Shown in pieces: positions 6,398 through 17,299 of a DNA stretch of 56,463 bases. The stretch's first letter is position 1; each line of letters starts with the position of its first letter. The notes beneath the pieces are model-generated. The model made no database searches, was not told the origin of the DNA, and worked only from the letters and a program-made list of their open reading frames with translations. A program made the translations under genes and the position numbers. Source of the DNA: Bacteroidota bacterium (GTDB lineage: Bacteria; Bacteroidota; Bacteroidia; CAILMK01; JAAYUY01); assembly GCA_018698135.1 (NCBI GenBank), contig JABINZ010000139.1, positions 1 through 56,463 on the forward strand, written 5' to 3'.

Positions 6398-6913
6398 CTA
6401 TTTATTTTCAAGACCGAGTTTCTTCTTAACAAAAGAAGTAACATTATCAGAATCTTTGGAAAACAATACGGATCCTCCAGATGTGTCAAGAATATAATCG
6501 TAATTTTTCTCTTTAGCTACTTCTTCTACTGCAGCTTTAACTTTATCCAAAATTGGTTGCAATAGCGCTTTTTCTTTTTCGGACAATTCATTTGTTGCTT
6601 CTTCCTGGAATACTTTAATTCGCTCTTCTAATTGCATAATCTCAGTTTCCTTATCTTTCTTAACAGCATTGGTCCAATTTGGTGCCTTTTGCTCGTAATC
6701 AGCAATTTTCAATCGATACTCATTAACCAAAACATCCACCTGCGCTTCCAGTTCTTTTTGATATACCATTAAACTTTGTTTTGCAGTTTCGACCTCAGGA
6801 AGTGTTGCAAGCAGCTGTGACGTATTAATATGTCCAATTTTAATATTTTGGGCACTAACACCTATACTAAATAAAATGAGCATTACTGCAATTACATTCT
6901 TAATGGCTTTCAT
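6398..6913 (-). CDS. OmpH/Skp-family periplasmic chaperone, copy 1
   Basis: Skp-like chaperones hold unfolded outer-membrane proteins in the periplasm before delivery to BamA. The 171-residue protein has a signal peptide (MKAIKNVIAVMLILF then VSAQ, cleavage near 22) and a long charged helical middle with an EKEKALLQP turn, typical of the tentacle helices of OmpH. The start at 6913 is chosen because an upstream in-frame ATG at 6943 falls inside a promoter-like box (6941-6948) and would mask the signal peptide. It lies between a second ompH-like gene and murI, as in many Bacteroidota. Confidence 0.88.
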   Translation of the reverse strand: MKAIKNVIAVMLILFSIGVSAQNIKIGHINTSQLLATLPEVETAKQSLMVYQKELEAQVDVLVNEYRLKIADYEQKAPNWTNAVKKDKETEIMQLEERIKVFQEEATNELSEKEKALLQPILDKVKAAVEEVAKEKNYDYILDTSGGSVLFSKDSDNVTSFVKKKLGLENK

Positions 6914-6940
6914 ATTTTGATTTTTATTTTTTTGAAAAGG

Positions 6941-6948
6941 CAAAAATA
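6941..6948 (-). promoter_or_regulatory. Candidate internal -7 box ahead of ompH copy 1
   Basis: Minus-strand TATTTTTG matches TAnnTTTG, 27 bp upstream of the ATG at 6913. It could give ompH copy 1 and murI extra transcription inside the bamA operon. No -33 TTG is seen at the right distance. Confidence 0.35.
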
Positions 6949-6975
6949 GGACTTATTATGAGAAATTTATATAGT

Positions 6976-7509
6976 TTATTTCTCGATATTTTCAATCCCA
7001 AGAATTTCCAGAACCTCATCACTTCGATCATACTTCGCATTAACAAAAAGCATTGTTACTGCACCAGATTTGTCGAAAACGAAATCAATTCCTTCGTTTT
7101 GAGCAAGTTTTTGAATAGCATCAAATACCTTATCTTGGATAGGTTTAATTAATTCTTTTCTCTTTTTAAATAAATCACCCTCTTTACCAAATTTGGCTTC
7201 CTTTAATTTATTTAATTCATCCTCTTTCTTTAAGATTTCGTTCTCACGCTTTTTTCTTATTTCGTCTGGGAGCAAAACTTGTTCAGCTTGATAGGCATTA
7301 TAAAGATTGTCCACTTCCTGAACTTTAACACGAATTTCAGCTTTCCAATTTTCAGCTAATTCATCTAACTGCTTTTGGGCTGATTTATATTCTGGTATTT
7401 TATCCAGTATATATTCTGTATCCACATAGGAAAAACTTTGTGCAAAAGAAATGTTTGATGTAAAGAGAGCTAATAATAAAATGGAGGTTGTAATTTTGAG
7501 TGACTTCAT
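6976..7509 (-). CDS. OmpH/Skp-family periplasmic chaperone, copy 2
   Basis: Second Skp-like chaperone, 177 residues, with signal peptide MKSLKITTSILLLALF ending ISFAQ, followed by a Lys/Glu-rich coiled-coil (about 60-130). It shares the pattern of copy 1 (start GYVDT/GHINT-like strand, helical tentacles, final strand ending near a C-terminal Ile/Leu) but the two are clearly diverged. Extending the frame upstream to 7689 runs into bamA and lacks support; the ATG at 7509 begins the signal peptide. It lies 52 bp after bamA. Confidence 0.88.
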   Translation of the reverse strand: MKSLKITTSILLLALFTSNISFAQSFSYVDTEYILDKIPEYKSAQKQLDELAENWKAEIRVKVQEVDNLYNAYQAEQVLLPDEIRKKRENEILKKEDELNKLKEAKFGKEGDLFKKRKELIKPIQDKVFDAIQKLAQNEGIDFVFDKSGAVTMLFVNAKYDRSDEVLEILGIENIEK

Positions 7510-7561
7510 GATTGTGTTATTTTTATTTACTAAAAGTACATAAAAAGTGCCAAAGCAAAAT

Positions 7562-10042
7562 TTAGAATTGCTGGCCGATAGAAATATGGAACTGACCTTT
7601 GTTGGCAGCAGGACTCCCAGGAACGTCATCAAAGCCATATCCCCAGTCAAAGCCAAGTAATCCAAACATAGGCATAAAGATCCTGACACCTGCTCCTAAA
7701 GACCTGTAGACGCTAAATGGATTGTACTCCTTGAAATTTATCCAGCTATTACCAGCTTCAGCAAATACGAGAGCATATATTGTTGCACTTGGATTTAATG
7801 AAAATGGATATCGGACTTCCAATGTGTATTTATTAAAAATAGTTCCACCTATTTCATCATTTTTTTCAGCAGTAAGTGAATTGTTCTCATAGCCTCTTAA
7901 AGCGATTAGCTCACGTCCATCCAAATTATATCCTGACAAACCATCACCTCCAACGTAAAAACGCTCAAAGGGTGTAATACCAATCGATCTATTGTACATT
8001 CCCAAAAATCCCATATCGATACCAACATGTGCGACTAATTTGTCAAAAACAGTTAAATACCAAGCAGCATCAAAACGCCATTTATGATATTCCATCCATC
8101 TAAATTTCTCTTGTTGAGAGGCATTTGTATAATCCTTATTTGAAAATAAAGAATATGGCGGAGAAGCTTGAGCTGATAAAGAAAATGAAGAACCTTTTCT
8201 AGGGTATATTGGTGGATCAACGGAATTTCTGGCTAAAACAATTTTTGCATTCAAATTATTTGAATAACCATCAGTAAACGTAAATTCATATTGATAATTA
8301 TTCAGATCATAGCGTTGATAGGTAATTGCCGAATATAAAGTAAAGAAGTCATCTGGAAATTTTAGTCTTTTACCTAATCCTACTGTAGCACCTGTAATTT
8401 TAATCTGTTGAAAATCAGGATTATCTTTACTTATACCGTTTGATTGAAAAGATTGATACAAACTCAAAGTAAATGAATTTGGCTTCTTACCACCAAACCA
8501 TGGCTCTGTAAATGAAAAGTTGAATGAACTATAATATTTTGCATTGGATTGAAAACGAATACTTAAACGTTGTCCATCACCTGCAGGCAAAGGTCTCCAG
8601 GCTTTTGGTTTAAACATCTTTTTTGTAGAAAAGTTGGAAAACACGAATCCTAAACTACCAACAAACTGACCGGCACCCCATCCTCCTTGTAACTGGAATT
8701 GATCAGAAGGTTTTTCTACCACTTTATACTCCAAAGCAACCGTACCGTTTTCAGGATCAGGAGTTGGAATAACATTCATTTGTTCAGGATCAAAATAACC
8801 CAGTTGATTTAATTCTCTTTGAGAACGAATAATATCCGCACGACTGAACTTTTCACCCGGTCTCGTTCTTAATTCTCTGAGAATAACATGATCGCTTGTA
8901 CGTAAATTACCAGAAATAGTTACTGAGCTTATTGTGGCCTGAGGGCCTTCAAATAATCGTATTTCCAAATCAATACTATCTTTTTCAACACCTATTTCTA
9001 CAGGTACTACTGAGAAAAACAAGTATCCATTATCCATATATAGGGAAGATATATCAATACCGGTTGGACTCATGTGAAGTTTTTGTTCTAATAAATCAGG
9101 ATTATAAACATCACCCTTCATAATCCCTAAAACTGCGTCCAAATCCTTTACTGTATATTTTGTATTTCCTGTCCATACAATATTCCTGAAATAATATTGC
9201 CCACCCTCTTCAATTTGTATTTTGATTCGAATAAACTCATTATTTACAAACGAAACAGAATCATAGACAATTCTTGCATCCCGATAGCCTAAAGTATTAT
9301 AATGTCCAATAATACGCTCTTTGTCTTCTTCATACAGAGTCTCTATATATTTTGACGTACGAAATATATTCCATTTATTGTATTGTTTTGTTTTCTTGAG
9401 TAAGCTATTAATCTTTCGATCTTTAACAATGGAATTGCCTTCCACAATTAATTCCCCAATCCGAATCTTACTATTTTTGGCTATTTTTATATTTAATTGA
9501 ACACTATTTTTAGCAAAGAGGGTATCCCCTGTTTGACTTATTTCTATAGATGGATTGTAATATCCTTTGTCAATAAAATATTCTTTAACCTGATTCGTGA
9601 CATTTTGCAACAGCTGTTGTGTAACGATTTCTCCCTGAACCAAAGAAATTTTCTCCTTGATTTTTTCAGCTTCGGATTTTGAAACACCATCTAGAGAGTA
9701 TCGGCTAAGTCGAGGTCGTGTTTTAACATCAATGGTTAAATATACATTTTCGCCACTTAGGCTATCGACATATAAAATAACATTTGAAAACAATTTCTGT
9801 TTCCATAAATTCCGAATGGCCTGGCTTATTTCATCACCTGGAATATAAACTTCTTTTCCGACTGAAAGACCAGAATATGCTACAATAATAACCCGATCAA
9901 TATTAGCGTCTCCACTAACATTAATAGATTGAATTTTATACTTTTTAGGAAATGTGTAATCGAAATCTTCGACACTAACCTGAGTAAAACTTTTTACACA
10001 AATAAAGGTAAAAACTAAAAGGGCTAATTTAACTTTCATCAT
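7562..10042 (-). CDS. bamA: Outer membrane protein assembly factor BamA
   Basis: Central Omp85 protein that folds beta-barrel proteins into the outer membrane. After a signal peptide (ends SFTQ) come periplasmic POTRA repeats over about 40-440, for instance IQSINVSGDANID and ISSVTISGNLRTSD, and then a C-terminal barrel. The conserved loop-6 motif is LRGY at 715-718, the local form of VRGF/Y, and the protein ends in Phe as expected for a BAM signal. With start ATGATG at 10042/10039 the protein is 826 aa and overlaps uppS by 14 bp, which suggests translational coupling. Confidence 0.95.
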   Translation of the reverse strand: MMKVKLALLVFTFICVKSFTQVSVEDFDYTFPKKYKIQSINVSGDANIDRVIIVAYSGLSVGKEVYIPGDEISQAIRNLWKQKLFSNVILYVDSLSGENVYLTIDVKTRPRLSRYSLDGVSKSEAEKIKEKISLVQGEIVTQQLLQNVTNQVKEYFIDKGYYNPSIEISQTGDTLFAKNSVQLNIKIAKNSKIRIGELIVEGNSIVKDRKINSLLKKTKQYNKWNIFRTSKYIETLYEEDKERIIGHYNTLGYRDARIVYDSVSFVNNEFIRIKIQIEEGGQYYFRNIVWTGNTKYTVKDLDAVLGIMKGDVYNPDLLEQKLHMSPTGIDISSLYMDNGYLFFSVVPVEIGVEKDSIDLEIRLFEGPQATISSVTISGNLRTSDHVILRELRTRPGEKFSRADIIRSQRELNQLGYFDPEQMNVIPTPDPENGTVALEYKVVEKPSDQFQLQGGWGAGQFVGSLGFVFSNFSTKKMFKPKAWRPLPAGDGQRLSIRFQSNAKYYSSFNFSFTEPWFGGKKPNSFTLSLYQSFQSNGISKDNPDFQQIKITGATVGLGKRLKFPDDFFTLYSAITYQRYDLNNYQYEFTFTDGYSNNLNAKIVLARNSVDPPIYPRKGSSFSLSAQASPPYSLFSNKDYTNASQQEKFRWMEYHKWRFDAAWYLTVFDKLVAHVGIDMGFLGMYNRSIGITPFERFYVGGDGLSGYNLDGRELIALRGYENNSLTAEKNDEIGGTIFNKYTLEVRYPFSLNPSATIYALVFAEAGNSWINFKEYNPFSVYRSLGAGVRIFMPMFGLLGFDWGYGFDDVPGSPAANKGQFHISIGQQF

Positions 10043-10784
10043 GAGATAATAATTGTTCACTTACTTTACCAAACCTTCTTTCTCGATTTTGGTAGTCAAC
10101 AATAGCTTGGTAATAGTCTTCCTTTGAAAACTCAGGCCACTTTTTTGAGGTGAAATAAAACTCTGAGTAAGCTAATTCCCAGAGTAAAAAATTGCTGATT
10201 CTATATTCTCCACTAGTCCGTATTAAAAGCTCTGGATCAGGAAAATCAGCAGTAGAAAGGTAACTTTTAAATAAATCCTCAGTAATAGGTTGATTCTCAT
10301 TCACAGAAGAGTCATTTTTTATTTTTGTTACCGCATTCATTATATCCCATCTGGAGCTATAGCTTAATGCTATTACAACTTTCAAGCCAGTATTATTCTT
10401 GGTTAATTCAATCGCATTTTGAACTTCTTCCAATGTTTTTTTGGGAATTTTGTCCAGATCGCCAATAACATGAATTGATGCATTGTTTTTGTTCAATTCT
10501 TCTAATTCTTTTCGAATGGTAACCACCAACAAATTCATTAAAGCACTCACTTCTCTCTGAGGTCTTTTCCAGTTCTCTTTGGAGAAGGTATAAAGAGTTA
10601 AATATTTCAGTTTCAGTTCTACACTTGCTTCAATAATTTGACGAACAGTTTTTACGCCTGCTTGATGACCAAAAATCCGATTTTTATTATTTTCTTTAGC
10701 CCATCTTCCATTGCCATCCATAATGATAGCAATATGATTTGGAAGCTTTTCTAAATTGATTTTATTTAAATAATTTGGGATCAT
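10029..10784 (-). CDS. uppS: Isoprenyl transferase (undecaprenyl diphosphate synthase)
   Basis: Adds isoprene units in cis to farnesyl-PP to make the C55 lipid carrier for cell-wall and O-antigen synthesis. The signature MDGNGRWA at 22-29 contains catalytic Asp23, and the substrate-binding block RTSGEYRISNFLLWE lies at 189-203. The protein is 251 aa, normal length. The gene lies between the DUF6089 array and bamA and overlaps bamA by 14 bp, linking carrier-lipid and outer-membrane protein assembly. Confidence 0.96.
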   Translation of the reverse strand: MIPNYLNKINLEKLPNHIAIIMDGNGRWAKENNKNRIFGHQAGVKTVRQIIEASVELKLKYLTLYTFSKENWKRPQREVSALMNLLVVTIRKELEELNKNNASIHVIGDLDKIPKKTLEEVQNAIELTKNNTGLKVVIALSYSSRWDIMNAVTKIKNDSSVNENQPITEDLFKSYLSTADFPDPELLIRTSGEYRISNFLLWELAYSEFYFTSKKWPEFSKEDYYQAIVDYQNRERRFGKVSEQLLSHDES

Positions 10785-10814: not shown

Positions 10815-11609
10815 CTAAAATTCGAAACAAACCTTGTTTCTGATTTGAAAAGATAAACCGACTCCGGTAAACATATACCAATCAATTAAATCAGGCCTCC
10901 CGCGCTGTTTTCCGTCATAACCAATGGAGGTCGAAGATCTGTCAGACAACTCAGATGCTATTGGACCATACGCATTTTGAAGTATATCTATATTATAATA
11001 GGTGGTGCTTACGTCATCCAAATAATCAGTAAACGTATATCTAAAGCCATAACTAATGGTTAGATTTATGGACTTATTCACTTTGAATTTAATACCTCCT
11101 CCTAGAGGAATAGCAAATTGATATAAGGAATATGCACTTTTGTTTGATTCTAAATGCACTCCTTCAGTGTCAAGGCCAGCTAACTTAATAATGTTTTGAT
11201 TGTACTGTGTGCGTGGTTCATACAAAAAACCAGCTCCTCCAATAAAGGCATATGGAGTAAACTTATTGGGATGAATTCCCAGTCCAAAAGGGAAAAAATT
11301 AAACTCAAATAGATAGGAAAACTCTGTAATAGTTGTAAAAAAACTTAGATTTCGAATCTCAAGATGTTTGAAATTATTATCATTTCCTGAAATTTGCCCT
11401 TGAACAAAAGCGAATGTATGCGAAATAAATGGATTAACATTTTTCTTTATGAATAGGCCACTGGCCATCTTCGTTTCAGAAAAAACGATTTCAGGTGCTA
11501 AGTCACCAATATAATTAGCGCCTCCAAGCTGAAAACCAACTTCCCAGTTTTGTGCATTCACAAAAACTGGAAGCATCAGAATTAGTAATGTTATTTTTAT
11601 CTTGAACAT
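10815..11609 (-). CDS. DUF6089-family outer membrane beta-barrel protein, copy A
   Basis: Family of unknown function that usually precedes uppS-bamA in Bacteroidota. The 264-residue protein has a signal peptide (ends VNAQ at 20), the N-terminal strand WEVGFQLGGANYIGD, and FTDYLDDVS at 193-201. It ends C-F-E-F, that is Cys at position -4 and a terminal aromatic suited to BAM recognition. It is the most diverged of four tandem paralogues: the block FNP...LQPLGTEGQ shared by B, C and D is here only EP...LAGLDTEGV. I see no promoter in the 60 bp before it, so it is probably read with copy B. Role unknown; it lies 30 bp before uppS. Confidence 0.8.
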   Translation of the reverse strand: MFKIKITLLILMLPVFVNAQNWEVGFQLGGANYIGDLAPEIVFSETKMASGLFIKKNVNPFISHTFAFVQGQISGNDNNFKHLEIRNLSFFTTITEFSYLFEFNFFPFGLGIHPNKFTPYAFIGGAGFLYEPRTQYNQNIIKLAGLDTEGVHLESNKSAYSLYQFAIPLGGGIKFKVNKSINLTISYGFRYTFTDYLDDVSTTYYNIDILQNAYGPIASELSDRSSTSIGYDGKQRGRPDLIDWYMFTGVGLSFQIRNKVCFEF

Positions 11610-11669
11610 ACTATTTCCAATAACATCAGATAATGAAAAATATTACTATTTATGTTAATTATTTTTGTC

Positions 11670-12500
11670 CTAATATCCTAAACAGCCTCTGGGTAGCAAA
11701 GAATAAGTAAATGTAAATCCAGCAAAATAATACCAATCTTTTGCGTCTGGGCTTCCTCGAGGATCATCTTCTGACTTTTCAATCAACTCATCTCCTATTT
11801 CTCCAGTTCGATTAGAAAGCTTTACGGCTATAAGCCCATTTCTATACAGTAAGTCTTTTAAGTCTACATAGTTAGTACTAACATCATCTAAGTAATCTGT
11901 AAACGTTTTACGAGCGCTTAATTCACAGCCAATATTAATGTTTTTTCCAATTGAGTATTTCCAACCAAAGCCAAACGGAATCACTATTTGCGTTAGTTTA
12001 TACCTTCTGTCGAAATATTCAGGAACATTCAAATATTGACCTTCTGTGCCTAATGGCTGCAAATTAGTCCATTTCTCATTATACAATGCTTGAGGGTTGA
12101 ATCTCAACAGCGAAACACCAGCAAAAATATAGGGCGATGACTTATAGGTAAAATGATTAGTTCTATATCCCAAAATATTAAACTCGGGTTGAATGCCAAT
12201 ATCTAAAACTGTTGATCTAAAACTTAAATTACGCGACCACTGCCGATGATAATACTTCTTTGCATTTTCATCTGAACCAGAAATCATTCCCTTGATAATA
12301 TTTCCTTTTAGAGTGAGATAGCGGTTAATGTTATATCGAATAATTCCACCATATGCAAAATGAGTTTCATTCATTTTAATGGCACTTTCTGAAAAGTCAC
12401 CATTATAATTGGATGCACCTGTAAATACACCAATTTCCCAAAATTGAGCATATAAAAAAACTGGAAAAAAAAGGAAAGCTGACAGAACGATTTTTTTCAT
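11670..12500 (-). CDS. DUF6089-family outer membrane beta-barrel protein, copy B
   Basis: Second paralogue, 276 aa. Signal peptide ends LYAQ at 19; then WEIGVFTGASNYNGD, the block GVSLLRFNP at 128-136 with LQPLGTEGQ at 147-155, and FTDYLDDVST at 200-209. The C terminus is C-L-G-Y, again Cys at -4 and a terminal aromatic. Alternating hydrophobic strands fit an eight- or ten-strand barrel, but strand count is an inference. It is close to copy C by shared motifs. A TATCTTTG box lies 26 bp upstream, and 101 bp separate it from copy C, so it may begin its own transcript. Confidence 0.8.
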   Translation of the reverse strand: MKKIVLSAFLFFPVFLYAQFWEIGVFTGASNYNGDFSESAIKMNETHFAYGGIIRYNINRYLTLKGNIIKGMISGSDENAKKYYHRQWSRNLSFRSTVLDIGIQPEFNILGYRTNHFTYKSSPYIFAGVSLLRFNPQALYNEKWTNLQPLGTEGQYLNVPEYFDRRYKLTQIVIPFGFGWKYSIGKNINIGCELSARKTFTDYLDDVSTNYVDLKDLLYRNGLIAVKLSNRTGEIGDELIEKSEDDPRGSPDAKDWYYFAGFTFTYSLLPRGCLGY

Positions 12501-12525
12501 GAATCAGTATTTAATTTACCAAAAA

Positions 12526-12533
12526 CAAAGATA
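12526..12533 (-). promoter_or_regulatory. Candidate -7 box for DUF6089 copy B
   Basis: Minus-strand TATCTTTG matches TAnnTTTG, about 26 bp upstream of the ATG at 12500. A TTG lies only 13 nt upstream of the box, too close for a standard -33 element, so support is partial. Confidence 0.4.
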
Positions 12534-12601
12534 AATTAATTTTAAGCAATAATTCCAGAAACAATAATAAAATGATTTGAATGGGGAGGCAATTAGATTA
12601 A

Positions 12602-13450
12602 TTAAAATCTATAGCAAGCGTTCGGTAGTATAGAATAAGAAATAGTAAATCCAGTAAAAATGTAAAAATCATTATTAGTTGGATCACCTCTGTCTTCAGC
12701 CGAACTGAAATCCAATCTTGTACCAAGAAATTCTTCAGTACGATTAGCGAGAACATCAGCAATTGCTATATTCTCGCCATTAATTTCAACCAATCCATGA
12801 GTAGCACTTAATATTTCTGGTTCTACATAGGTTTTACTTACATCGTCCAGATAATCTGTAAATGTAACTCTGACCCCAAGTTCATAACCAATATTCCAAT
12901 AACGATTAATAGCATATTTCCATCCGAATCCCATTGGGATACACAATTGGGTCAATGCATATTTTTCTCTATCGTTATATTTGGTTGTTCCTTGTCCTTC
13001 AGTACCCAATGGTTGAAGGTTAAACCACTCACCCCGATATTCTGCTTTTGGATTAAATCGAAAAACAGATACTCCAAAAAGCAAATAGGGTGAACTATTA
13101 TACCTGGGATGCGGAGAGCTATAGCCTAATAAATTGATTTCAGTCTGAACTCCTACATCTAGCAAAGATGATTTAAAACTTAGGTTCCTCGTTTTTTGCT
13201 GAAGGCTAGAAGAATTTGCATCATCTCCAGAAATAGTTCCATAGAACCCATTTACCTTTACAGAAAACCATTGATTTACATTATACCTAACAATGGCTCC
13301 TGTTGCAGGATGGAGCTCCTTGATGTCAATTCCAGATTGTACAAGATCACCAGAATAACTACTGACGCCACCAAATACGCCTACCTCCCAATATTGGGCA
13401 TTGGAAATAAAAGGAATACTTAGTAGGATTAACAGTAGGAGTTTTCGCAC
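12602..13450 (-). CDS. DUF6089-family outer membrane beta-barrel protein, copy C
   Basis: Third paralogue, 282 aa. Signal peptide ends SNAQ at 19; motifs are WEVGVFGGVSSYSGD, GVSVFRFNP at 126-134, LQPLGTEGQ at 145-153 and FTDYLDDVS at 197-205. The C terminus is C-Y-R-F. The start codon is GTG at 13450; I see no in-frame ATG that would keep the signal peptide. It begins 19 bp after the stop of copy D, so C and D are probably one transcript. Confidence 0.8.
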   Translation of the reverse strand: MRKLLLLILLSIPFISNAQYWEVGVFGGVSSYSGDLVQSGIDIKELHPATGAIVRYNVNQWFSVKVNGFYGTISGDDANSSSLQQKTRNLSFKSSLLDVGVQTEINLLGYSSPHPRYNSSPYLLFGVSVFRFNPKAEYRGEWFNLQPLGTEGQGTTKYNDREKYALTQLCIPMGFGWKYAINRYWNIGYELGVRVTFTDYLDDVSKTYVEPEILSATHGLVEINGENIAIADVLANRTEEFLGTRLDFSSAEDRGDPTNNDFYIFTGFTISYSILPNACYRF

Positions 13451-13469
13451 GAAAATGGTCTATGAATTA

Positions 13470-14363
13470 TTAGAAACAGAAACAAGTATTTTTTCTGAAT
13501 GTTTTTGAAATGGAGAATCCAAACCACATATAAGCATCGTTAGCTTCCGGGTTACCTCTTGGAAAAGCTTCATTAGCAGCATTTGGACGTGATGAAGTAA
13601 ATACACCACCAGCTATTGTCCCAAGTCTATCAGACAATTGAACAGCTGCTGCATCATTTGGATCTGCCATATTAAAATCAGTATAATCTGGCCATTCACC
13701 TCCAAAATCATCTAAATGATCTGTAAATGTTTTGTTCTGACTTACATACAATGCAATATTCCATAAATAGAGATTCAATTGTTTACTGCTTCTTGGCCTT
13801 TTGAAACTATATTTAACTCCAAAACCATAAGGTATAGAAATCTGGGTTAGAGCATATTTAGCTTCGTAGCCAGGCTTGCCTTGACCTTCCGTGCCTAAAG
13901 GCTGTAATTCATAAACGGTACCGTTTAATACGCCTTTTGGATTAAAATTAAACACACTAACTCCAGTAAAAATATAGGGAGACCAGTTTCTTAATTTATT
14001 ACCACTTATAAAGGGCAAAATGTTATATTCAATCTGACCATGAAAATCCAGTAAGTGAGAATAAAACTGACCTTCTCTACTCCAGGCAGCTCCTACTTGT
14101 GCAGGATCTTTATCTCCATCATAGCCTTCGATTTTACCATAATACAATCCACCTTTGAAATTAAATCTAGGAGTAAAATAATATCTAAAAAAGGCTCCTC
14201 CGCCTAATTTACTCTGATTCCAGGAAACATGCTTCCATGTCAGGTCTCCTAAATACTCAGTTACACCCAGGTAAACACCGACTTCTTTATCTTGAGAATG
14301 AACATTATGGCTCATTCCTATTACAAATATAATCGCAACAAATACTTTCAATAATTGTTTCAT
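13470..14363 (-). CDS. DUF6089-family outer membrane beta-barrel protein, copy D
   Basis: Fourth paralogue, 297 aa. Signal peptide ends VHSQ at 24; then KEVGVYLGVTEYLGD, GVSVFNFNP at 134-142, LQPLGTEGQG at 153-162 and FTDHLDDF at 213-220, a variant of the FTDYLDDVS seen in the other three. It ends C-F-C-F. An insertion with a basic RPRSSK stretch near 189-194 is special to this copy. ATG at 14363 is chosen; the codon just upstream, at 14366, is GTG. A good two-box promoter lies 30-62 bp upstream, making this the first gene of the array after nadK. Confidence 0.8.
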   Translation of the reverse strand: MKQLLKVFVAIIFVIGMSHNVHSQDKEVGVYLGVTEYLGDLTWKHVSWNQSKLGGGAFFRYYFTPRFNFKGGLYYGKIEGYDGDKDPAQVGAAWSREGQFYSHLLDFHGQIEYNILPFISGNKLRNWSPYIFTGVSVFNFNPKGVLNGTVYELQPLGTEGQGKPGYEAKYALTQISIPYGFGVKYSFKRPRSSKQLNLYLWNIALYVSQNKTFTDHLDDFGGEWPDYTDFNMADPNDAAAVQLSDRLGTIAGGVFTSSRPNAANEAFPRGNPEANDAYMWFGFSISKTFRKNTCFCF

Positions 14364-14392
14364 CACTTTATTTTTACGACTGTTAGATTTAA

Positions 14393-14425
14393 CAAAAATA
14401 ATACAGAATAGAATTATAACAAAAA
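14393..14425 (-). promoter_or_regulatory. Promoter of the DUF6089 array (copy D)
   Basis: On the minus strand a TTTTTG (-33 region) is followed after 19 nt by TATTTTTG, an exact TAnnTTTG -7 box, giving a 5' leader of roughly 20-25 nt before the ATG at 14363. This is one of the better matches to the two-part Bacteroidota promoter in the window. Confidence 0.6.
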
Positions 14426-14446
14426 TAAAAACAAATTATTAATAAT

Positions 14447-15331
14447 TCAAACATTTCTACTATCAATTCCCCAATTAAGTTTTTCTCTTATTATATCACT
14501 GAATTTCATATCATTAAGCCTTACTAATTGAATATTAAAGGGGGCTTTCTTCAATTTTAATTTATATGTTTCATCGACTATTTTATATCTTGAATCCAAT
14601 GAAATTAAAAAACCGCCTTCTCTGCTATTTATTTCAAATGAAAGCTCAACATTGTCTGGAACGATGACAGGCCTAACGTTTAAGTTATGTGGAGCCACAG
14701 GTGTAATGACAAAATTACTTGCTTCTGGGTATACAATAGGGCCACCACAACTCATTGAATAAGCAGTTGATCCGGTTGGAGTTGCCACGATCAGACCATC
14801 GCCCCAATATTTATTAAAAAACTCTCCGTTTAAATACGTAGTAATAGCTGTTAAAGATGAATTGTCCCTTTTATGAATTGTAAAATCATTTAAGGCATAG
14901 CGATCTTCCTTAAATAAAGGAGCTGACGTTTCTAATTCAATAACAGATCTGCTTTCAATAATAAATTTATTATTAATTAAAGCTTGGATAACACTGTCTA
15001 TTTCATCAATAGAATTATTCGCAAGGAATCCTAATCGCCCAATATTGAATCCAAGAACTGGAATATTAGAATCTTTAACAAAAAGTAATGTATTCAGAAA
15101 AGTACCATCTCCTCCAATACTGATCATAAAATCTACTTTATGTCGAATTAGTTCTGAATAGTTTTTATAAACAATACGATCATCCTTAGCCTTAAAATTA
15201 TTAGTTAATGCTACTTGTAAATCTTCATGCAAAACCAACTCTATATTGTTTGTTGTCAGGCAGTTAATAATATCCATATAAACTTGAATATTATTTTCTA
15301 AAATCCCTTTTGAATAAAGTGCTACTTTCAT
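14447..15331 (-). CDS. nadK: NAD kinase
   Basis: Phosphorylates NAD to NADP. The 294-residue protein has the diagnostic GGDGT at 73-77 (catalytic Asp75), the NIGRLGFLA block, and the substrate-binding PTGSTAYSMSCGGP. The ATG at 15331 is taken as start; the preceding codon at 15334 is GTG. It has its own promoter and is the first gene of a co-oriented block leading to the DUF6089 genes, uppS and bamA; an 80-bp gap with another promoter follows, so coupling is only partial. Confidence 0.95.
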   Translation of the reverse strand: MKVALYSKGILENNIQVYMDIINCLTTNNIELVLHEDLQVALTNNFKAKDDRIVYKNYSELIRHKVDFMISIGGDGTFLNTLLFVKDSNIPVLGFNIGRLGFLANNSIDEIDSVIQALINNKFIIESRSVIELETSAPLFKEDRYALNDFTIHKRDNSSLTAITTYLNGEFFNKYWGDGLIVATPTGSTAYSMSCGGPIVYPEASNFVITPVAPHNLNVRPVIVPDNVELSFEINSREGGFLISLDSRYKIVDETYKLKLKKAPFNIQLVRLNDMKFSDIIREKLNWGIDSRNV

Positions 15332-15474: not shown

Positions 15475-16326
15475 ATGAGTAGAATTAGCAGGTATAAGAA
15501 ATTTATAGATATTGAAGACGTTATTAAGTCGAAAAGCGAATTTTTACTGAAAATTACGCCTAAAATTATTATTCGTTGGATTAGAAGAGTTTTGCATGAA
15601 GAAGATTTAAATTCTGCTATTAAAAATAATATTGACAAACATGGGCACGACTTTGCACAAGCCATATGTGATGAATTTGGAGCAAAACTATTTATTAAAG
15701 GAGAATTACCAAAAGCCTTAAATGAAAGATTCATTATGGTTTCCAATCATCCCCTTGGAGGATTGGACGGCTTGGCGCTAATTGCCACTATTGGAAAAAT
15801 CCGAAAAGATTTAAAATTTATAGTGAATGACCTTTTATTATTTGTTGAGAATCTTAAAAACGTATTTCTACCTGTTAATAAAATTGGATCAAGTCCCAAA
15901 GAAGCATTAAGGATCATTAATAATGCTTATCAATCAAATGAATTGTTGTTAACTTTCCCATTTGGATTGGTATCCAGACGAAAAAAAGGCATTATTCAAG
16001 ATCTCGAATGGAAAAAAAGTTTTATTACCAAAGCAAAGCAAACCAGCAGACATATTATACCTATCCATATAAACGGACGGAATTCTAATTTTTTCTATAA
16101 TTTATCAAACCTTAGAAGATTTCTAAAAATTAAAATAAATATAGAAATGTTTTTTTTGGTCAATGAAATGTATAAACAAAAAGATCAGAATATTACCATC
16201 ACCTTTGGTAAACCTATTCCTATATCAACATTTGATAATACATATAGTGAGACTGAATGGGCTGAGAAATTACGTAAGTTTGTGTATGATTTAGCAATCG
16301 ATCCTGGCAAATCCTTTCAAGCTTAA
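15475..16326 (+). CDS. PlsC-like O-acyltransferase, probably glycine-lipid O-acyltransferase
   Basis: Predicted membrane-associated acyltransferase, 283 aa. The catalytic block reads NHPLGGLDG, with His92 and Asp98 separated by five residues rather than the four of the usual PlsC HX4D motif; the second block is FPFGLVSRRKKG at 161-172. The partner 22 bp downstream is an OlsB-like N-acyltransferase. In Bacteroides thetaiotaomicron an adjacent pair, glsA (O-acyl) and glsB (N-acyl), makes N-acyl glycine lipids, and this pair matches that pattern. The alternative is ornithine-lipid or another aminolipid product. Substrate is inferred from family and context, not seen in the sequence. Confidence 0.75.
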   Translation: MSRISRYKKFIDIEDVIKSKSEFLLKITPKIIIRWIRRVLHEEDLNSAIKNNIDKHGHDFAQAICDEFGAKLFIKGELPKALNERFIMVSNHPLGGLDGLALIATIGKIRKDLKFIVNDLLLFVENLKNVFLPVNKIGSSPKEALRIINNAYQSNELLLTFPFGLVSRRKKGIIQDLEWKKSFITKAKQTSRHIIPIHINGRNSNFFYNLSNLRRFLKIKINIEMFFLVNEMYKQKDQNITITFGKPIPISTFDNTYSETEWAEKLRKFVYDLAIDPGKSFQA

Positions 16327-16348
16327 TCGGTGAAATTTTAACGAACTT

Positions 16349-17299
16349 ATGAAAGAAATTATTCAACCTATAGAAAAGAGTCTTCTAAAAAAAGAATTGA
16401 ACGAAGACAGGTTTCTCAGAAATACAAATAATGGGAACAATGAGATTTATATTATCACACATCATGACTCCCCAAATACATTACAGGAAATTGGACGACT
16501 AAGGGAAATAAGTTTTCGAGATGCGGGCGGGGGAACAGGTAAAAGCATCGATTTAGATGATTATGATACTGCTCAAACACCTTACAAGCAGCTTATTGTC
16601 TGGGATCCTGAGGATGAAGAAATTGTAGGTGGTTATCGATTTATTCATTGTAAAGATGTAGCACTTGATTCAAATGGGCAACCCCTGTTAGCTACTTCAG
16701 GATTATTTAATTTCAGTGAAACATTTATTAAAGACTATATCCCTTACACTGTTGAGCTCGGGCGTTCTTTCGTGCAGCCTTTGTATCAACTCACTTACAA
16801 TTTTAGAAAAGGGATGTATTCTCTTGATAATTTGTGGGATGGCTTAGGTGCTATTGTTGTTAATGATCCACAAATTAAATACTACTTTGGTAAAATTACC
16901 ATGTATCCTCGTTTTAATATTTGTGCACGAGATATGATTCTTTTTTTCTTGTCAAAATATTTTGAAGATAAAAGCAAACTAGTAATACCGATTAATCCAA
17001 TAACCTTTCAAACTGAGATTAAAAAATTAGAACATACATTTTATGGGGAGACTTTTCAGGATGATTATAAAATATTGGTTCAGGAAGTAAGACGATTGAA
17101 GGAAAACATTCCTCCACTCGTTAATGCATACATGAATCTTTCTGCGACCATGCATTATTTTGGAACTGCCATCAATAACTCATTTGGTGATGTTGAAGAA
17201 TCGGGAATTATAATTGCAATTGACGATATTTATGATATTAAAAAAGATCGTCACCTTTCAACATATAAAAAAGAAGATAAACCTGCTAGCAAAGTTTAA
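16349..17299 (+). CDS. GNAT/hemolysin-family N-acyltransferase, probably glycine-lipid N-acyltransferase
   Basis: OlsB-like acyl-ACP-dependent N-acyltransferase, 316 aa. The core starts near 32 (IYIITHHDS), includes IGRLREISFR at 48-57, VGGYRFI at 93-99 and the hallmark ELGRSFV at 136-142. It would attach a 3-hydroxy fatty acid to an amino group, probably glycine, with the upstream gene adding the second, ester-linked chain. Its stop codon is directly adjacent to the stop of convergent cvpA (shared TAATTA), leaving no room for a terminator between the two genes. Confidence 0.78.
   Translation: MKEIIQPIEKSLLKKELNEDRFLRNTNNGNNEIYIITHHDSPNTLQEIGRLREISFRDAGGGTGKSIDLDDYDTAQTPYKQLIVWDPEDEEIVGGYRFIHCKDVALDSNGQPLLATSGLFNFSETFIKDYIPYTVELGRSFVQPLYQLTYNFRKGMYSLDNLWDGLGAIVVNDPQIKYYFGKITMYPRFNICARDMILFFLSKYFEDKSKLVIPINPITFQTEIKKLEHTFYGETFQDDYKILVQEVRRLKENIPPLVNAYMNLSATMHYFGTAINNSFGDVEESGIIIAIDDIYDIKKDRHLSTYKKEDKPASKV

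What the first reader, a model, noticed from the sequence alone, without database searches (positions are those of the whole stretch)
10815..14363. Four tandem DUF6089 outer-membrane proteins between nadK and uppS-bamA
One such gene normally precedes uppS-bamA in Bacteroidota; here there are four (264-297 aa), all with signal peptides, WE-hydrophobic-GV...GD N termini and an FTDYLDDVS or FTDHLDDF block. B and C are closest by shared motifs, D has a unique basic insertion, and A has lost the FNP...LQPLGTEGQ pattern. Tandem amplification next to bamA suggests a barrel family whose members have split roles, perhaps in envelope biogenesis or as a substrate or partner of BAM.
Basis: partly seen in the sequence, partly recalled or inferred. 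Interest (0 to 1): 0.6.

Follow-up and report, generated by a model that had tools for sequence, protein, structure and literature searches.

The report
Four tandem PorG secretion-system barrel genes
Four side-by-side genes encode related outer-membrane barrel proteins of the PorG family, a known part of the Bacteroidota type 9 protein-secretion machine; the best-studied species are described with one PorG, so four old, separately conserved copies suggest a machine with several different track-attached arms.

Summary
In detail: four intact same-strand genes lie between nadK and uppS-bamA, all over the DUF6089 cut-off. The interpretation needs correcting. DUF6089 here is PorG, the type 9 secretion (T9SS) barrel that is disulfide-bonded to the moving GldK/PorK track in F. 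johnsoniae and P. gingivalis; it is not a BAM part. Three copies pass the NCBIfam PorG cut-off. D scores below it (118 vs 130 bits), but its orthologues in three related genomes pass.

All four end in a Cys-bearing C-tail (D has Cys-x-Cys), as do 37 of 37 copies in the order. The same genome has gldKLMN, SprA, at least 150 cargo domains, and a GldK with the partner cysteine. A and D are predicted as confident 8-stranded barrels.

The copies are old: each is a 100%-supported orthologue group in all four genomes of the family, in fixed order; a recent four-fold amplification is rejected (p-AU 1e-66). Multi-copy porG at this locus is common in the class (11 of 17 families), so four is the upper end of a wider pattern. 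The division of labour is untested. Paralogues differ most on the periplasmic side and keep shared extracellular motifs.

The parts
10815..11609 (-). PorG copy A (uppS-proximal), 264 aa, signal peptide plus 8-stranded barrel
   Evidence: NCBIfam T9SS_PorG 161.9 bits (cut-off 130); AlphaFold2 pLDDT 93.6, 8 strands; orthologue clade 100%
10818..10841 (-). A: periplasmic C-tail RNKVCFEF with one Cys
   Evidence: sequence; follows strand 8 in the model
11670..12500 (-). PorG copy B, 276 aa
   Evidence: T9SS_PorG 163.6 bits; orthologue clade 100%
11673..11696 (-). B: C-tail LPRGCLGY with one Cys
   Evidence: sequence; aligned Cys invariant
12602..13450 (-). PorG copy C, 282 aa (GTG start)
   Evidence: T9SS_PorG 167.7 bits; orthologue clade 100%
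12605..12628 (-). C: C-tail LPNACYRF with one Cys
   Evidence: sequence; aligned Cys invariant
13470..14366 (-). PorG-lineage copy D (nadK-proximal), 298 aa
   Evidence: DUF6089 62.1 bits (cut-off 23.2); T9SS_PorG 117.8 bits, below cut-off 130, but orthologues L062, L066, L067 are above it; AlphaFold2 pLDDT 91.2, 8 strands
13473..13496 (-). D: C-tail RKNTCFCF with a Cys-x-Cys pair, as reported for F. johnsoniae PorG
   Evidence: sequence; PMC12635249
13764..13805 (-). D: basic insertion (KRPRSSKQLNLYL) in the strand 6-7 turn, on the periplasmic side of the model
   Evidence: model strands 174-187 and 202-213; only in this family's D copies
14393..14451 (-). two overlapping Bacteroidota-type promoter-like sites (TTTG-N-TAnnTTTG) in the nadK-D gap
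   Evidence: 11 in the window against 4.9 expected; two fall here. Pattern only.
10029..10784 (-). uppS (undecaprenyl diphosphate synthase), conserved neighbour
7562..10060 (-). bamA, conserved neighbour
   Evidence: TIGR03303 319.8 bits, cut-off 297
6398..7620 (-). two Skp-like genes, conserved neighbours (skpA at this locus is counted as a T9SS gene in F. johnsoniae)
   Evidence: the second matches Skp at E 5e-6, the first has no family hit; PMC12611786
14447..15334 (-). nadK, conserved neighbour upstream of the array

Best explanation
The four genes are paralogous PorG proteins of one type 9 secretion system. Each makes an 8-stranded outer-membrane barrel whose short periplasmic C-tail carries a cysteine. 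That tail most likely forms a disulfide with the exposed Cys of GldK (Cys308, motif KGCF) on the motor-driven GldK/GldN track, so each barrel is dragged along it and passes force to the translocon or its carrier proteins. Shown here: family, barrel fold (models of A and D), tails, the GldK cysteine, a T9SS core, and old, separately conserved orthologue groups. Inferred: the disulfide in this organism, transfer of the F. johnsoniae mechanism, and a functional split. Because the paralogues share extracellular motifs (TEG, FTDxLDD) but differ most in periplasmic turns and tail, I think they do the same surface-side job while attaching or docking differently: D through an exchangeable Cys-x-Cys clip plus a basic turn, A-C through a single Cys.
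For: NCBIfam T9SS_PorG hits and D's orthologues over cut-off. porG-uppS-bamA-skp synteny as at the F. johnsoniae bamA locus. F. johnsoniae and P. gingivalis PorG are disulfide-bonded to GldK/PorK through tail Cys (PMC12635249). Tail Cys in 37 of 37 order copies. GldK Cys in own genome and all 29 other genomes read. gldK-L-M-N cluster, one SprA at 2497 bits, 11 PorP/SprF matches, 10 over cut-off, at least 150 CTD cargo matches. Confident 8-strand models, pLDDT 91-94, nearest solved folds OmpA/OmpX/OmpW-type barrels. Each copy a 100% clade with fixed order in four genomes. Recent amplification rejected, p-AU 1.3e-66. Purifying selection at about the level of uppS. Between-paralogue identity 0.11-0.20 in turns against 0.35-0.41 in loops 3-4, while the turns are mostly 0.4-0.9 alike within orthologue groups.
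Against: No experiment exists for this organism. D is below the PorG equivalog cut-off. GldK keeps its Cys also in genomes whose PorG at this locus lacks a tail Cys (G040-G043), so the pairing is not strictly coupled. Copy number does not follow the number of PorP/SprF carriers (Spearman 0.03, n=37), so a simple one-PorG-per-carrier scheme is not supported. dS is saturated, so the dN/dS values are rough. Region identities rest on 16 sequences and short turns.
Confidence: 0.8

Rival explanations
1. The copies are redundant: an old tandem array kept for dosage of PorG, without separate roles.
For: Same fold, shared extracellular motifs, all with Cys tails, all in one apparent operon.
Against: Copies are 25-47% identical, show no homogenisation, and each is conserved on its own in position and sequence over four genomes, D's tail and turn included. 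Dosage alone does not explain that.
Confidence: 0.25
2. Only one or two copies (probably A, beside uppS, or B/C) are T9SS PorG; D and perhaps others have moved to another outer-membrane job.
For: D scores below the PorG cut-off and has a unique periplasmic insertion. Across the class a nadK-side copy often lacks the tail Cys, so this position can lose the track link.
Against: D keeps the tail, and with a Cys pair like F. johnsoniae PorG. Its orthologues pass the PorG cut-off. The Cys-less class copies form another clade.
Confidence: 0.3
3. One reading: the barrels are partners or special substrates of BAM in envelope biogenesis.
For: Constant linkage to bamA. Every barrel is a BAM substrate in the trivial sense.
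Against: The family is a T9SS component; the F. johnsoniae BAM study places porG at the bamA locus but as a T9SS gene (PMC12611786). P. gingivalis and F. johnsoniae porG mutants have T9SS defects (PMC12704123; PMC12635249).
Confidence: 0.05
4. An assembly or binning artefact of a fragmented genome.
For: The genome has 287 contigs.
Against: The copies are far too different from one another, and the same four-gene order occurs in three other genomes.
Confidence: 0.01

Closest known systems
PorG of Flavobacterium johnsoniae (Fjoh_1692), PMC12635249
   Same: 8-stranded barrel, C-tail cysteine(s), locus beside bamA and skp, T9SS/GldK genome context; D shares the Cys-x-Cys tail
   Different: the papers treat it as a single gene; here four paralogues, three with a single tail Cys
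PorG of Porphyromonas gingivalis (PG0189), PMC12635249, PMC12704123
   Same: single tail Cys, as in A-C; OM barrel that binds the PorKN ring
   Different: no paralogue described in the papers read; no multi-copy array
SprF/PorP barrels
   Same: SprF is also linked to GldK by tail cysteines in F. johnsoniae; at least three PorP/SprF proteins here have a tail Cys (L045 ..LICPGF, L047/L236 ..LTCPDF, L051/L237 ..IPCERF)
   Different: another, larger barrel family (TIGR03519) that carries type B cargo or adhesins
Two- and three-copy porG arrays in other Bacteroidia
   Same: same place between nadK and uppS
   Different: many nadK-side second copies have a basic, Cys-less tail; none of the order's copies do

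Membership tests
DUF6089 (PF19573) | score over curated cut-off 23.2 bits | tested here: met
   A 104.7, B 78.7, C 88.4, D 62.1
T9SS PorG (NF052316), copies A, B, C | equivalog score of at least 130 bits | tested here: met
   161.9, 163.6, 167.7 bits
T9SS PorG (NF052316), copy D | equivalog score of at least 130 bits | tested here: not met
   117.8 bits, though D orthologues in L062, L066, L067 reach 131.5, 166.2, 154.9. D is filed as a diverged paralogue of the PorG lineage, not as a certified equivalog.
T9SS PorG | 8-stranded outer-membrane barrel with signal peptide | tested here: met
   AlphaFold2 of A and D; B and C by homology only
T9SS PorG | cysteine in the periplasmic C-tail | tested here: met
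T9SS PorG | genome encodes a T9SS with GldK carrying the partner Cys | tested here: met
T9SS PorG | locus beside uppS-bamA-skp | tested here: met
T9SS PorG | disulfide bond to GldK and requirement for secretion | not testable with these tools
   needs experiment
BAM complex subunit | co-purification with BamA / similarity to a known Bam subunit | not tested
   literature assigns the locus's porG to T9SS (PMC12611786)

The most novel reading that the evidence does not exclude
The T9SS of this family runs with a set of four non-interchangeable PorG barrels on one GldK track (possibly a heteromeric collar, or arms for different carriers), one of them with an exchangeable Cys-x-Cys clip, together with several Cys-tailed SprF-like proteins that use the same GldK cysteine.
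Probability: 0.3. Interest if true: 0.65.

Novelty: new variant of a known kind. Interest (0 to 1): 0.42.

Why it matters
The link between PorG and the moving GldK track was reported only in 2025 for species studied with one PorG, and what PorG does there is still a speculation of its authors. Natural sets of three or four diverged PorGs show which parts are held fixed (tail Cys, extracellular TEG and FTDxLDD motifs) and which vary (periplasmic turns), and so point to residues to test. They also correct an easy misreading: DUF6089 genes beside bamA are T9SS genes, not BAM genes. I found no paper in the library on multi-copy porG; the library does not hold most subscription journals.

Tried and rejected
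Sequence search of the PDB with C and with a 59-row profile: no hit, so no solved PorG to compare. The idea that PorG copy number follows the number of PorP/SprF carriers: rejected, Spearman 0.03, p 0.84, n=37 (PorG counts taken by hand from the table). The idea that GldK loses its Cys where PorG has none: rejected, GldK Cys present in all 30 genomes read, including four whose PorG tail lacks Cys. Whether B and C split inside this family or earlier: unresolved (support 46/48; another arrangement). Sigma-70 type promoter scan: no more sites than in shuffles. Paper searches for DUF6089 and for paralogous PorG gave nothing.

Full report
OBSERVATION. All four score far above the Pfam DUF6089 cut-off, and the genome holds no other DUF6089 gene.

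WHAT THE FAMILY IS. NCBIfam names A, B and C 'type IX secretion system protein PorG' (161.9-167.7 bits, cut-off 130); D scores 117.8, below the cut-off. D's orthologues in L062, L066 and L067 score 131.5-166.2, so D is a PorG lineage that has drifted. In F. johnsoniae PorG is an 8-stranded barrel needed for T9SS secretion, and its C-tail cysteines form a disulfide with GldK Cys343 on the moving track; P. gingivalis PorG has one such Cys (PMC12635249). The F. johnsoniae BAM paper places porG and skpA at the bamA locus but as T9SS genes (PMC12611786). The neighbourhood here is the same.

THE T9SS IN THIS GENOME. One SprA (2497 bits); a porP-gldK-gldL-gldM-gldN cluster over all curated cut-offs, and a GldJ-like gene (below its own cut-off) beside a SprF-like gene; 11 PorP/SprF matches, 10 over cut-off; at least 150 CTD cargo domains, the scoring limit. 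Its GldK has NSKGCF, matching the reactive Cys motif (Arg-Gly-Cys-Phe in P. gingivalis PorK); this Cys is kept in the own genome and the 29 other genomes read.

TAILS AND FOLD. A ends KVCFEF, B RGCLGY, C NACYRF, D NTCFCF. A tail Cys is present in 37 of 37 full-length copies in the order. AlphaFold2 gives 8 strands for A (pLDDT 93.6) and D (91.2), most like OmpA/OmpX/OmpW-type barrels. With the N terminus in the periplasm, as for such barrels, the tail and the strand 2-3, 4-5 and 6-7 turns face the periplasm and the GldK track. D's basic insertion lies in the 6-7 turn.

HISTORY. In four genomes of the family (window, L061, L062, L063) the order D-C-B-A is kept, and each position forms its own 100% clade. 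A tree in which the 16 copies form one clade is rejected (p-AU 1.3e-66). A groups with the uppS-side copies, B and C with the middle copies, and D with the nadK-side copies of two other families of the order (f2, f4), so three types were there before the family arose. B/C is the later split, its date unresolved. Family f3 has three copies beside nadK and one beside uppS on other contigs. All nine genomes of the order that pass 85% completeness have three to five matches. Outside the order, of 17 families sampled once with porG beside uppS, 6 have one copy, 8 two, 2 three, 1 four. dN/dS between the window and its congener is at most about 0.07 for each copy where it can be computed, as for uppS; dS is saturated.

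HOW IT MOST LIKELY WORKS. Inference: each copy is a track-attached barrel. Among paralogues of the family the periplasmic turns are the least alike (0.11-0.20), the extracellular loops 3 and 4 more alike (0.41, 0.35) with fixed TEG and FTDxLDD motifs, while within orthologue groups the turns are mostly 0.4-0.9 alike and the tails 0.58-1.00. This fits a common surface-side job with different attachment or docking on the track side. It does not fit one PorG per carrier type, since copy number does not follow PorP/SprF number. At least three SprF-like proteins here also end in a Cys tail, so seven or more barrels could share the GldK cysteine.

LIMITS. The disulfide, expression and division of labour are untested here. 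Sample counts for copy number outside the order are small. The paper library lacks most subscription journals, so 'not described' means not found there.

Noticed in passing
L075, L083, L082, L084, L093, L118 and others (nadK-side porG copy): Across the class many loci carry a second PorG next to nadK whose tail has no Cys and often ends in a basic ..KF motif (e.g. TTRKGLPKF); most of these form a clade of their own. I found no description of a PorG that could not be clipped to GldK.
   Followed up: partly
L127, L141, L166, L176 (single porG loci): The only PorG at the locus lacks a tail Cys (..NYFKEY type in several), yet GldK keeps its cysteine in the same genomes.
   Followed up: partly
L233:1097-3421 and L234:1713-4040: In family f3 of the same order a ~775-aa protein has a C-terminal PorG-like barrel (about 137-145 bits with a local profile) after ~500 residues with no Pfam match; its tail has no Cys.
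   Followed up: partly
L235 (G014:C51:1-10000): A row of five 426-612 aa proteins with a weak PorG-like barrel at the N-terminal end; the two scanned ones have EF-hand-like motifs near the C terminus.
   Followed up: partly
L045, L236:2094-3074, L237:1270-2310 (own genome): Three PorP/SprF-family proteins end in a Cys tail (LICPGF, LTCPDF, IPCERF), one beside a GldJ-like gene: further candidates for track attachment.
   Followed up: partly
15475-17299: glsA and glsB, glycine lipid synthesis genes, stand divergently upstream of nadK.
   Followed up: no
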